From Bifidobacterium rousetti (GTDB lineage Bacteria > Actinomycetota > Actinomycetes > Actinomycetales > Bifidobacteriaceae), in the NCBI RefSeq assembly GCF_008698235.1, contig NZ_PEBH01000001.1, forward strand, positions 1-64,000: 64,000 nucleotides of DNA, in the 5' to 3' direction. Shown in pieces: positions 30,748 through 34,260 of this stretch (the stretch's first letter is position 1; each line of letters opens with the position of its first letter). The notes beneath the pieces were generated by a model. It had not been told where the DNA came from and searched no databases. It saw only the letters and a list, made by a program, of their open reading frames with translations. Position numbers and translations under genes: made by a program.

Positions 30748-30749
30748 AG

Positions 30750-30956
30750 GATTACCAACCCTTCGACACGGACGCGGTGAACATTAACCTTGGTGGAGGC
30801 CCTGCGACGTTGACCCTCAAAAGCGGGGCGGCTATCCTCGCCTATGGATCAGCTCAGGTAGCCGTTACCTCTGGATATGCCGGGATGGCCTTTGGCAACT
30901 ATAACCTGACCGTACAGTCAGACGGTGTATGGTCCAATGGCAAGAAACTCGCATAG
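30750..30956 (+). other. Silent fibre cassette 1 (type A)
   Basis: Open frame without a start codon, from GAT-TAC-CAA to TAG, 68 residues. Type A pattern: PFDTDAVNINLGGGPATLTL then LAYGSAQVAV and GNYNLTV. The core lies 3 bases after the recombinase stop. Confidence 0.85.
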
Positions 30957-31205
30957 GATTACCAAACCCCTGTAGCCGACAGTGGCTCGCTCGGCTTCAG
31001 CTTGGACGGACAGGGGTCCAGCGAATGGAACGTGAGTTTCAATCGAAGGTTCTCCAATCCGCCAGCAGTCACAGTGGGCTCGGATCAGGCGCGTCTTGTC
31101 GTGCATGTGAAGAACATCTCTTCGACAGGCTTCAGCGTGCAGGGATACGTGGCCCACACATCTCCACGTTCCGGGCAGATTTTCTGGTACGCATTTGGTG
31201 TCTGA
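30957..31205 (+). other. Silent fibre cassette 2 (type B)
   Basis: 82-residue open frame starting DYQTPVADSGSLGFS, with the type B features SVSF-like strand (NVSFNRRFSNPPAVTVGSD), ISSTGFSVQGY and a C-terminal FWYAFGV. No start codon of its own in this frame. Confidence 0.85.
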
Positions 31206-31207
31206 GG

Positions 31208-31420
31208 TATTACCAATCCCTCGATGCTGTCACCCTTACAGTCGGTGGAGGTGCAGCCAATGTGTCTCTGTCATCCGGGGAGGCCAGCCTGAGATACGGC
31301 AGCAACAGTCACACCGATTGTGAGCCTAGCTACACGGCAATCGCCTATGGTCAGTACAACGTCATCGTTGATGCGAACGGGGTTCACATCAATGGTGCAA
31401 AAGGTGTAACCCACTTCTGA
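31208..31420 (+). other. Silent fibre cassette 3 (type A)
   Basis: 70-residue open frame starting YYQSLDAVTLTVGGGAANVS and ending VHINGAKGVTHF. Type A family; nearest to cassette 7 at its C-terminus. Confidence 0.85.
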
Positions 31421-31422
31421 GG

Positions 31423-31641
31423 TATTACCAACCCTTCGACCCGAGTGCATCAACCATCTCCCTCGGTGGCGGTCCTGCACAATTGACGCTCAAAAGTGGT
31501 TCAGCCAATCTTGCCTATGGTGATGCGCACGTTGATCTCTCCTCTGGTCGAGCAGGAATAGCCTATGGTGATTACTACTTCTTGGTTACTCCAGAAGGTG
31601 CTTTTGCGAATGGTCCCTCGGGACAAAAGAAGCTGGCGTAA
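31423..31641 (+). other. Silent fibre cassette 4 (type A)
   Basis: 72-residue open frame starting YYQPFDPSASTISLGGGPAQ and ending ANGPSGQKKLA. Type A family. Confidence 0.85.
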
Positions 31642-31642
31642 G

Positions 31643-31861
31643 CATTACCAACCCTTCGACACCACGGCGACGTCGATTACCCTCGGTGGAGGAGACGCAA
31701 CACTGAAATTGAAGGCTAGTTCATCGAACCTGAACTACGGTAGCGCGCACGTCGATTTGACAGGCAGTTACGCGGCCATCGCGTACGGTAGCTACAACGT
31801 AATGGTCACATCAAGCGGCGTGTTCGCAAACGGCCCAAACGGCCAAAACCGGCTTGCGTAG
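31643..31861 (+). other. Silent fibre cassette 5 (type A)
   Basis: 72-residue open frame starting HYQPFDTTATSITLGGGDAT and ending ANGPNGQNRLA. Its core is preceded by C (CATTACCAA), so the first residue would be His. Confidence 0.85.
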
Positions 31862-32113
31862 GATTACCAATCCCCGTTGATTCAGAGCGGTAGTTGGCGA
31901 ATCGGTTCGCTGGCGTCTGGCGAGATGCAGTCGACGCGAGTGTACTTCAACCAGTCGTTCCGCTCCACGCCTGTGGTGTGCGTGACATGCGGAGCGGCCA
32001 ACGTATCGGTCCACCCGGATAGCGTGAGCAGCAGCGGTTTCTCCGTGCAGGCGTACGCGCCGGGTGCGGCATCGACCGCTAGCGGATCATGGACAGCCAT
32101 CGGCTCAAGCTGA
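31862..32113 (+). other. Silent fibre cassette 6 (type B)
   Basis: 83-residue open frame starting DYQSPLIQSGSWRIGSLASG, with VYFNQSFRSTPVVCV, SSSGFSVQAY and WTAIGSS. Closest in plan to the expressed cassette. Confidence 0.85.
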
Positions 32114-32115
32114 GG

Positions 32116-32334
32116 TATTACCAAACCTTTAACCCTGATGCGCAGTCAATCGACCTTGGTGGTGGAGTCGCCACACTGTCTCTCGGGGGATCATCCACAC
32201 ACCTGCGGTACGGAAGCGCTGCGCGAGTGGACCTAACTCCGAGTTACAGTGCCATCCAGTTCGGCGGTTACAACATCATGGTTGATTCGGGTGGAGTGCA
32301 TATCAATGGCGCTAAGGGTGCAACCAACTTCTAA
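32116..32334 (+). other. Silent fibre cassette 7 (type A)
   Basis: 72-residue open frame starting YYQTFNPDAQSIDLGGGVAT and ending VHINGAKGATNF. It is the innermost plus-strand cassette. Confidence 0.85.
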
Positions 32335-32380
32335 GCAGTACGGGAACGTGGACCCCGACTGGAGTGCGGTCGGAATCTGA
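32335..32380 (+). pseudogene. Remnant of a type B cassette
   Basis: Directly after cassette 7 the plus strand reads YGNVDPDWSAVGI then TGA. WSAVGI plus stop is the same ending as cassette 8 on the other strand. With no core or remaining body, it is the 3' scar of a lost type B cassette. Confidence 0.65.
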
Positions 32381-32403
32381 CTCTAGATTCCGACCGCACT
32401 CCA
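32360..32403. terminator. Central 19-bp hairpin of the shufflon
   Basis: Perfect 19-bp inverted repeat (32360-32378, 32385-32403) with a 6-base loop, formed by the identical 3' ends of the remnant and cassette 8. As RNA it would be a strong hairpin on either strand, placed where the fibre transcript leaves the minus-strand cassettes. Confidence 0.6.
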
Positions 32404-32622
32404 TGTGCCGTTCACACTTCCCGTGCCTCCGTCTGTGATGTACCACGCGATCGTTGAGCCGCTGGAGGTTAGCGTCTGTGTCACCACGTTGACGTTGGCC
32501 TGTCCCACGTTCACGGTCAGGGCCGGCGTGCGGGTGAAGTTCTGGTTGAAGTTGATCCTCGTGGACCCCCATTGACCGGAACCGCCCCACGAACCGGAAT
32601 CGGTTTTGAGGGTTTGGTAATT
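32383..32622 (-). other. Silent fibre cassette 8 (type B)
   Basis: 79-residue open frame on the minus strand, starting NYQTLKTDSGSWGGSGQWGS and ending TWSAVGI. It directly follows the expressed cassette; its core is the palindrome GGTAATTACC. It lies downstream of the expressed stop codon and so is not translated in this arrangement. Confidence 0.85.
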
Positions 32623-32625
32623 ACC

Positions 32626-34260
32626 TCAGTAGCCGATTGCGTACCATTCGCCATAGGCGCTGTTGTTATACATGCTCCAGACTTGTATATTGCAGCCACT
32701 AGATGTAACCCCGTTAGTGTGGACATTAACGCTAGCCGAATTGCACGTCGCTACGACTATCGGGGTTTGCGAAAACCCCGAAAACGATACTGACGTATCC
32801 TTGCGTTCCTGCTCAGCAAGAGTGCCACAACTCCAACTACCAGACTGAACTTTGAGGGTTTGGTAATCCCCTTTGTCCACGAAATTGCTCTGACACCACG
32901 ACTGGGTCGCGTAACCGGACAGACTCGGCGTCTCGCCGTCACGGCCGTCCTGACCGGCCGGACCCTGCGCGCCGGTCGCGCCACGCTCGCCCTGCGGCCC
33001 CTGGGGGCCACGCTCACCCGGATCGCCCTTCGGTCCTGCGGGGCCGGTGTCGCCCTTAGCTCCCTTGGTCGGCAAACCGAAATGCAAATCCGTGCCATTC
33101 AGCGTGGCCGTGACCGCACTGCCCTCGACGGTTTCGGCGCTCACGGTGGTGAAGCCCTTGTCGCCCTTGTCGCCCTTGGGGCCCTGCGGTCCTTGGGGTC
33201 CGGTCTCGCCCTTGTCGCCCTTGGGGCCGGCCACACCCACGTTGATCGAACTGATGAGCGTGCCGACGGTGAAGTTGTCGTCCGCGACGGTCTGCACCTG
33301 ATACGTGCGGCCATCACTGGAGAGGATGGTGTCCCCGACCTTGATCGTCTGGTTCGGACCCAACGTGATCGAGCTTTTGGCGACGGTCGTGCTCGGTTCG
33401 ACCTTCACGGAAGCGAGGTAGACGGCGGCTCCTGCGGGGCCGGTGAAACTACCTTGGTTCTCCCAGTTGTCTCCGATGCGAATGTACAAATCGGTGCCCA
33501 CGAGGTAGCCGTCGCCCTGCTCCACGCCCGAGGTCGGCAGATCATCCTTGCTGGTGACGGAGCCGCGGATGCGCAACCCGGTGCCCACATCGCCCTTCGG
33601 CCCCTGCGGTCCCGTGGGGCCTTGCGGTCCGGCGACGCCCTGCGGTCCCACCTCGCCCTGCGGGATACCCAAGTTCAGGATGTTCTGGCCGGCGTTCTTG
33701 TCCAAAGTTGCGGTGGCCTTGCCGCCCGGTTCCACCGTGTCCACGGTGCCGATGCTGATGCCGAAGTTCGCGGCCGCGTCCTGCGCGGCCTGAGCATACT
33801 CCTGAGCCAAGTCCGCGTAATCCTGAATGTTCTTAAGCATGGCCTCGAAATAGCCGCGCCCGTCGTCGGTGGTCGCATCATAGTTGATGACGGAGGGGTC
33901 CACGAGCGCCTTGAACGGGCGGGACGCGATGACGGTGTCGCCGTCCAATACGTCGACGCCCATCATGATCTCACCAGACCGGGCGAGGGCCGAGGTGGGC
34001 ACGGGTTTCTCGAACGTGGCCGTCGCGGCCCCGCTGACCGGGTTCATGGGCACGAAATCGCCCACACTGGTCGAATCCGCCGGGTTCGTGTTATAGGTGA
34101 GTCTCGCTTTGAGGCTGTCGGTGACGGGCGCGCCGTTGTCCGTCACGACCACGCGGATCGTACGGCCCGCCAGATCGCCCTGATTCAATCGGATGGGCGG
34201 CTGGTAGTCGTTGGCCAGATTGATGATGACCGGGATGCGCCGGTTCGAGGCCAAAGCCAT
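32626..34260 (-). CDS. Tail fibre / receptor-binding protein with variable C-terminus
   Basis: 544 residues. Residues 1-200 form a baseplate-attachment part with an Ala-rich helix. Three collagen-like Gly-X-Y blocks follow (about 208-232, 343-370, 403-448). The constant stem ends near residue 464 (SWCQSNFVDKG). The last 80 residues, from DYQTLKVQSGSWS, are the currently expressed type B cassette (32626-32868). This part should bind the host surface. ATG 34260 follows GGAAG. Inversion at the ATTACCAA core (32860-32867) would swap the end. Confidence 0.9.
   Translation of the reverse strand: MALASNRRIPVIINLANDYQPPIRLNQGDLAGRTIRVVVTDNGAPVTDSLKARLTYNTNPADSTSVGDFVPMNPVSGAATATFEKPVPTSALARSGEIMMGVDVLDGDTVIASRPFKALVDPSVINYDATTDDGRGYFEAMLKNIQDYADLAQEYAQAAQDAAANFGISIGTVDTVEPGGKATATLDKNAGQNILNLGIPQGEVGPQGVAGPQGPTGPQGPKGDVGTGLRIRGSVTSKDDLPTSGVEQGDGYLVGTDLYIRIGDNWENQGSFTGPAGAAVYLASVKVEPSTTVAKSSITLGPNQTIKVGDTILSSDGRTYQVQTVADDNFTVGTLISSINVGVAGPKGDKGETGPQGPQGPKGDKGDKGFTTVSAETVEGSAVTATLNGTDLHFGLPTKGAKGDTGPAGPKGDPGERGPQGPQGERGATGAQGPAGQDGRDGETPSLSGYATQSWCQSNFVDKGDYQTLKVQSGSWSCGTLAEQERKDTSVSFSGFSQTPIVVATCNSASVNVHTNGVTSSGCNIQVWSMYNNSAYGEWYAIGY

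What the first reader, a model, noticed from the sequence alone, without database searches (positions are those of the whole stretch)
30748..32880. Recombinase-driven shufflon of tail-fibre ends
A tyrosine recombinase gene is followed by nine alternative fibre C-termini in two opposed orientations, each beginning at a conserved ATTACCAA core in one fixed frame. One inversion places any of them on the fibre stem. It gives a prophage a way to change host recognition. I recall Rin shufflons reported in bifidophages, so this may be a larger member of that class.
Basis: partly seen in the sequence, partly recalled or inferred. Interest (0 to 1): 0.93.

Follow-up and report, generated by a model that had tools for sequence, protein, structure and literature searches.

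The report
Nine-headed tail-fibre shuffling switch
A dormant virus in a Bifidobacterium genome carries nine alternative tips for its tail fibre, each behind the same short DNA site, next to a recombinase gene that is predicted to swap them by flipping DNA and so would likely change which bacteria it recognises; it is a larger variant of a switch already described in such viruses.

Summary
Nine copies of ATTACCAANCC (chance expectation 0.01 in the window) follow a tyrosine recombinase gene. Seven face right and two left. Each opens, in one fixed frame (xAT TAC CAA), a 67-82-codon fibre tip; the leftward site at 32867 lies inside the fibre gene.
It is a Rin shufflon as described for bifidophages by Mavrich et al. 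2018 (PMC6109161), but a divergent one: nine tips (published: five; at most seven sites in 27 related loci), a changed site core, a 465-residue collagen-like stem (published: 168), and tips in two families.
Not shown: inversion in this prophage. Its only database copy found is identical. Support comes from relatives. Two phages with identical Rin carry each other's tips on the stem. Two deposited genomes named phage PMBT6 differ by an exact inversion between opposed sites. A database protein with a 91.6% identical stem carries a tip of the other family, joined at the site.
One correction: a single inversion reaches seven tips; tip 8 needs two.

The parts
29890..30747 (+). rin-like tyrosine recombinase, 285 aa, Phage_integrase catalytic domain, no arm-type DNA-binding domain reported by Pfam; R134, K172, R230, H253 and Y262/Y263 the same in all 24 aligned sequences, this one included
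30751..30761 (+). rix-like site 1 (3 nt after the rin stop codon)
30753..30956 (+). fibre tip c1 (probably silent), family A, 67 aa
30958..30968 (+). rix-like site 2
30960..31205 (+). fibre tip c2 (probably silent), family B, H_lectin above the Pfam cut-off, 81 aa
31209..31219 (+). rix-like site 3
31211..31420 (+). fibre tip c3 (probably silent), family A, 69 aa
31424..31434 (+). rix-like site 4
31426..31641 (+). fibre tip c4 (probably silent), family A, 71 aa
31644..31654 (+). rix-like site 5
31646..31861 (+). fibre tip c5 (probably silent), family A, 71 aa (AlphaFold pLDDT 86.6, row of short beta strands)
31863..31873 (+). rix-like site 6
31865..32113 (+). fibre tip c6 (probably silent), family B, H_lectin just below the Pfam cut-off, 82 aa
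32117..32127 (+). rix-like site 7
32119..32334 (+). fibre tip c7 (probably silent), family A, 71 aa
32336..32380 (+). possible remnant of a lost tip (reads ...WSAVGI*, the same end as c8); inferred
   Evidence: sequence; inverted repeat
32360..32403 (.). 19-bp perfect inverted repeat (6-nt loop) where the two sets of tips converge; one arm is the 3' end of c8
32383..32619 (-). fibre tip c8 (probably silent), family B by alignment (no Pfam hit), 78 aa
32611..32621 (-). rix-like site 8, same orientation as the stem site
32626..32865 (-). fibre tip c9, now on the stem, family B, 79 aa (AlphaFold pLDDT 93.7, H-type-lectin-like fold)
32857..32867 (-). rix-like site 9, inside the fibre gene, at the stem-tip joint
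32866..34260 (-). constant fibre stem (Rc-like), 465 aa, BppU_N below its cut-off at residues 17-134, three collagen-like stretches
25794..26954 (+). dnaJ-like gene, the integration target (product name from the sequence and from recall)
   Evidence: repeat
26920..26956 (.). left copy of a 37-bp identical repeat (right copy at G000:C11:69896-69932): likely prophage ends
37879..41730 (-). tape measure protein; with Dit-like 37080-37886 and tail protein 35452-37137 it places the fibre gene at the end of the tail module

Best explanation
This is a Rin-type shufflon in a dnaJ-integrated Bifidobacterium prophage: nine alternative C-terminal tips behind one identical site core, whose neighbouring recombinase (Rin) is predicted to invert the DNA between the site in the fibre gene and an opposed site, and so would put a different tip on the collagen-like fibre stem. 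Shown directly: the nine sites, their two orientations, the common reading frame, the position of one site exactly at the stem-tip joint, and the recombinase gene ending 3 nt before the first site. Shown in relatives: tips placed in the silent array of one phage and on the stem of another with identical Rin, and an exact inversion between opposed sites in two deposited genomes of phage PMBT6. Inferred: that this Rin acts on these sites; that exchange happens inside the central core (alike within a locus, variable between loci); that only opposed sites recombine; that eight tips are silent because they lack a start; that family-B tips bind carbohydrate and that the tip sets host recognition.
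Against: No second arrangement of this very locus was found: the one copy (L003, IMG/VR) is identical over 11,591 nt and may be the same genome. The only other examined locus with the same site core, L036 in G054, has a rin gene with a stop at codon 50, so no sequence pair tests this core. Within-locus site identity is partly built in, since sites were collected at no more than 1 mismatch from a locus-specific core. The PMBT6 flip moved a block between the rin site and an inner site and left the stem tip unchanged. The prophage's own integrase reads in two frames, so the phage may be unable to excise. Family-A tips gave no fold match at E <= 0.001 in two libraries, so what they bind is open.
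Confidence: 0.88

Rival explanations
1. The locus is a frozen or decaying shufflon: built by Rin in the past, but no longer shuffling in this lysogen.
For: Only one arrangement is known. Another locus with the same site core has a broken rin. The phage integrase reads in two frames. A possible remnant of a lost tip lies at the convergence point.
Against: The window's rin is full length and holds the residues that are invariant in the 24 aligned sequences; all nine tips remain open in frame; all nine site cores are identical.
Confidence: 0.2
2. The array is a store of tips exchanged mainly by recombination between phages, with the recombinase gaining or losing cassettes by exchange between direct sites instead of inverting.
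For: Site number varies from 1 to 9 between loci. Seven sites here are in direct orientation, where exchange would delete or insert cassettes. A similar stem and the same site core occur with two non-sister Rins (AU p = 0.0001).
Against: Changes between near-identical loci are inversions at the sites (Mavrich et al. section 8, read). All + sites lie left of all - sites in 26 of 26 loci. Deletion and acquisition may occur in addition.
Confidence: 0.08
3. The repeats are mere remnants of tandem duplication of small tip genes, kept similar because they encode the same YQ joint; the recombinase is unrelated.
For: Family-A tips are 41-61% and family-B tips 30-44% identical to each other, so some arose by duplication.
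Against: Opposed orientations; an identical 8-nt core in front of two tip families while the flanking bases diverge; a like layout beside Rin homologues elsewhere.
Confidence: 0.02

Closest known systems
Rin shufflon of bifidophages Bb423phi1, Bl30698phi1, Bl157phi1 (Mavrich et al. 2018, PMC6109161; abstract, passages and section 8 read)
   Same: dnaJ-type integration, tyrosine invertase without arm domain, distinct integrase, constant fibre part with an internal site, variable tips in opposed orientation, each behind a short site; in fetched loci with that published site the register and codon phase are the same
   Different: nine tips instead of five; site core ATTACCAANCC instead of TTCCCTAACCC; 465-aa collagen-like stem instead of 168 aa; tips of 67-82 aa instead of 95-100 aa, in two families
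Rin shufflon of Eggerthella lenta clade 1 prophages (PMC8778435; passages read)
   Same: tyrosine recombinase, tips often with H-type-lectin domain, short asymmetric site inside and behind the constant gene
   Different: another host class; site ttccgtat; relation of that Rin to this one not tested here
Phage PMBT6 of B. thermophilum (records MK932884.1, MH444512.1)
   Same: Rin 51% identical, four sites, fibre gene with internal site; the two records differ by an exact inversion
   Different: site TTCCGTAA; short stem (202-codon open frame); gene annotated only as 'integrase'
R64 shufflon (Rci, PilV; recalled) and Min shufflon of p15B (described)
   Same: multiple inversion that exchanges C-termini of an adhesin or fibre
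   Different: Min uses a serine recombinase; R64 Rci is a tyrosine recombinase but acts on a conjugative pilus tip (recalled)

Membership tests
[quoted passage not shown]
   P0001, 285 aa: Phage_integrase domain at 104-263, otherwise only SAM-like hits below cut-off; 321 homologues at E <= 1e-10, best 120 listed
Rin shufflon | Recombinase distinct from the prophage's own integrase | tested here: met
   Integrase gene at G000:C11:68674 onward, split over two frames
Rin shufflon | Constant fibre N-terminus (Rc) with a site inside the gene and a second behind its 3' end | tested here: met
   Sites at 32867 (inside) and 32621 (behind), same orientation
Rin shufflon | Array of variable tips (Rv) in opposed orientation, each preceded by the same short asymmetric site | tested here: met
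   Nine of nine. The letters are not the published TTCCCTAACCC; the core also differs among the other loci and in E. lenta, so I do not take the exact letters as defining
Rin shufflon | Inversions observed at the sites | tested here: inconclusive
   Not for this locus (one arrangement); yes in relatives
Min/Gin/Cin serine invertase systems | Serine recombinase | tested here: not met
   Tyrosine recombinase
H-type lectin domain (tips c2, c6, c8, c9) | Profile match and fold | tested here: inconclusive

The most novel reading that the evidence does not exclude
Rin shufflons are a portable tip-swapping platform: the central bases of the site act as a private address that must match within one array but is free to change between phages, so a whole new stem with its own tips and address can be put under non-sister Rin recombinases. 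In this phage the platform has been moved to a collagen-like fibre, holds nine tips, and can present two unrelated receptor-binding folds (an H-type lectin and a beta-repeat tip without a known match) from one stem.
Probability: 0.35. Interest if true: 0.72.

Novelty: new variant of a known kind. Interest (0 to 1): 0.52.

Why it matters
Bifidophages are hard to plaque, and the authors who described Rin wrote that such inversion systems may help to explain it. A nine-tip array with two kinds of tip raises the ceiling for this system. The comparison of 25 loci yields a testable prediction of which bases Rin exchanges and which it binds. The PMBT6 pair points to inversion in a cultivated phage, which makes the open question (does Rin flip only opposed sites, and how is deletion avoided?) testable in a laboratory system.

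Tried and rejected
A second arrangement of this locus was sought in viral contigs with Rin and with the stem: only one contig, fetched as L003, L042 and L172, came back as a close copy. The 112 Bifidobacterium genomes gave none besides the own genome (best other Rin 69%; best other long stem match 52%), nor did the phage records.

The hairpin at 32360-32403 as a general pivot or terminator: an inverted repeat of 16 bp or more occurs at the convergence point in only 2 of 25 loci (window copy and L048), and no T-run follows it here; rejected as a defining part.

A one-base-shorter site than in relatives: first suspected, rejected once the codon phase was aligned.

Window and L036 Rin as sisters sharing the site by descent: rejected by the AU test (p = 0.0001). 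Caveats: only the part of L036 Rin after its stop was used, it is a long branch, and a first tree had been seen before the test.

Family-A tip fold: no match at E <= 0.001 in solved or viral structures; a sequence search against solved structures gave nothing credible, nor did one for family B.

Papers: among the rows listed by searches, the Rin shufflon is described in PMC6109161 and PMC8778435; PMC12282274 was listed as holding the phrase once and was not opened. Passages of PMC8705816 and PMC7264901 held no mention of a shufflon. I saw no paper on the PMBT6 inversion in these listings; most subscription papers are not held.
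Full report
What is there. The window lies in a 3.05-Mb genome. Its same-genus relative G070 has the same place and contig length as B. saguini NZ_JGZN01000008, so the host is a Bifidobacterium; the species was not determined. A prophage begins at the 3' end of dnaJ (25794-26954): a 37-bp identical repeat stands at 26920-26956 and at 69896-69932 of the contig. Its genes include terminase, portal, major head, tape measure and a Dit-like protein. At the end of the tail module lies a fibre gene on the minus strand (32626-34260), then an array of tips, then a tyrosine recombinase on the plus strand (29890-30747).

Sites and tips. ATTACCAANCC occurs nine times in the window, all in this array; 0.01 would be expected. 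The core ATTACCAA is identical nine times; the next base is A four times, C three times and T twice. Each site opens a tip in the frame TAC CAA (YQ), 67 to 82 codons long. Shuffles of each tip stay open in 1-23% of cases, product 1.4e-10. Among the first 12 codons only c1 (codon 9) and c6 (codon 5) hold a possible start codon, so the eight tips off the stem are probably silent. The tips form two families by sequence. Family A (c1, c3, c4, c5, c7) has no Pfam match. In family B (c2, c6, c8, c9), c2 passes the H_lectin cut-off, c6 falls just below it and c8 has no hit. The model of c9 (pLDDT 93.7) matches discoidin, the R1 pyocin fibre tip and snail lectins. The model of c5 (pLDDT 86.6) is a row of short beta strands without a match at E <= 0.001.

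The stem. The 465 residues before the site contain a sub-threshold BppU_N match and three collagen-like stretches. Homologous stems occur among database proteins (524 hits, best 120 listed, many covering under half of the query; the 13 best were looked at, nine of them aligned). P0123 is identical at 426 of 465 stem positions but carries a family-A tip from DYQ onward. So the two kinds of tip are alternatives on nearly the same stem in nature. A related stem exists in G048 (52% over residues 1-446) without a Rin match at E <= 1e-10.

The recombinase. P0001 has the catalytic domain and no arm-type domain in Pfam. In 24 aligned sequences, chosen from the 120 listed and including P0001, R134, K172, R230, H253, Y262 and Y263 are invariant. 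The position that aligns with a histidine of XerD (its box II histidine, recalled) is R in 21 and Q, E or K in one each. At E below 1e-50, Rin matches were found in 9 of 112 Bifidobacterium genomes, the own genome included.

Related loci. Rin loci came from viral contigs, genome contigs and whole genomes. Of 37 rows, sites were listed in 27. Ten rows were left out: L044, L105, L106, L107, L111 and L112, judged to repeat other rows, and L039, L055, L056 and L057, whose contig ends at or shortly behind rin. One more repeat (L059) was dropped, leaving 26. Of these, 25 with two or more full sites, 89 sites in all, were compared column by column. The number of sites is 9 in the window copy, 7 in L048, 6 in L036, and 1 to 5 in the rest. 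These are counts at no more than one mismatch and lower bounds where a contig ends or a site has drifted (in L034 and L053 the last site found is not preceded by a long stem frame; L058 ends at a site). Two annotated phages hold 4 (PMBT6) and 7 (ctl617). In 26 of 26 loci every + site is left of every - site. The codon phase in relatives, for example GAT|TCC CTA ACC in L052, equals GAT|TAC CAA ACC here: the same register, with two core changes. Columns 2-7 hardly vary within a locus but do between loci, while G at -3, T at 0-1 and CCC at 8-10 are nearly constant in both senses. I infer that the central block is the exchanged overlap and that the constant bases are bound by Rin. This is strengthened by L045 and L048, whose Rins are 95% identical but whose cores differ in one central base. 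It is weakened by the way sites were collected and by the relatedness of the loci.

Evidence that Rin inverts. L046 and L047 have identical Rin, and the stem tip of each is a silent tip of the other at 99-100% DNA identity. PMBT6 MK932884 and MH444512 bear the same phage name, have identical Rin, and differ by inversion of 435 nt between two 13-bp arms containing TTCCGTAA; this flip leaves the stem tip unchanged. Mavrich et al. report inversions between prophage and virion reads in Bb423phi1 (section 8). None of this is from the window's own phage, whose only other copy found is identical.

How it would work here. Inversion between the stem site (32867) and any + site puts that tip on the stem: seven tips in one step. 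Tip c8 has the stem's orientation and needs two steps. c7 and c8 have no site between them and move as one block (in arrays of 4 to 7 tips the reachable arrangements number 2 x (n-1)!, which would be 80,640 for nine, an extrapolation).

What is new. The closest known system is the Rin shufflon. The window meets every feature tested except observed inversion, and differs in number of tips, site core, stem and tip families. The same core and stem type occur in L036 with a Rin that is not sister to the window's (AU p = 0.0001), but that Rin is broken. It is therefore suggestive only that stem, tips and site travel together between Rin backgrounds.

Noticed in passing
L173:5336-5770 and L174:5382-5816 (PMBT6 MK932884.1, MH444512.1): Two deposited genomes named PMBT6 differ by an exact 435-nt inversion between opposed rix sites next to a rin annotated as 'integrase'.
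   Followed up: yes
G000:C11:68674-69863 (right end of the prophage, outside the window): The prophage integrase reads in two overlapping frames (264 and 140 codons), a frameshift or sequencing error; excision of this prophage is therefore uncertain.
   Followed up: partly
window:32360-32403: A 19-bp perfect hairpin (z -7.1 for the 81-nt stretch 32340-32420) at the convergence point of the array, one arm being the 3' end of tip c8 and the other the end of a possible lost tip; a 16-bp hairpin at the same place in L048.
   Followed up: partly
P0001 residue 227 and homologues: The position that aligns with a histidine of XerD (box II, recalled) is R, Q, E or K in all 24 Rin sequences aligned.
   Followed up: partly
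L036 (G054): Same site core and collagen-type stem, six sites and a third kind of tip (122 aa, collar-like by recall), but rin has a stop at codon 50.
   Followed up: partly
G048:C39:89566-90948: A related collagen-type stem in a genome without a Rin match.
   Followed up: no
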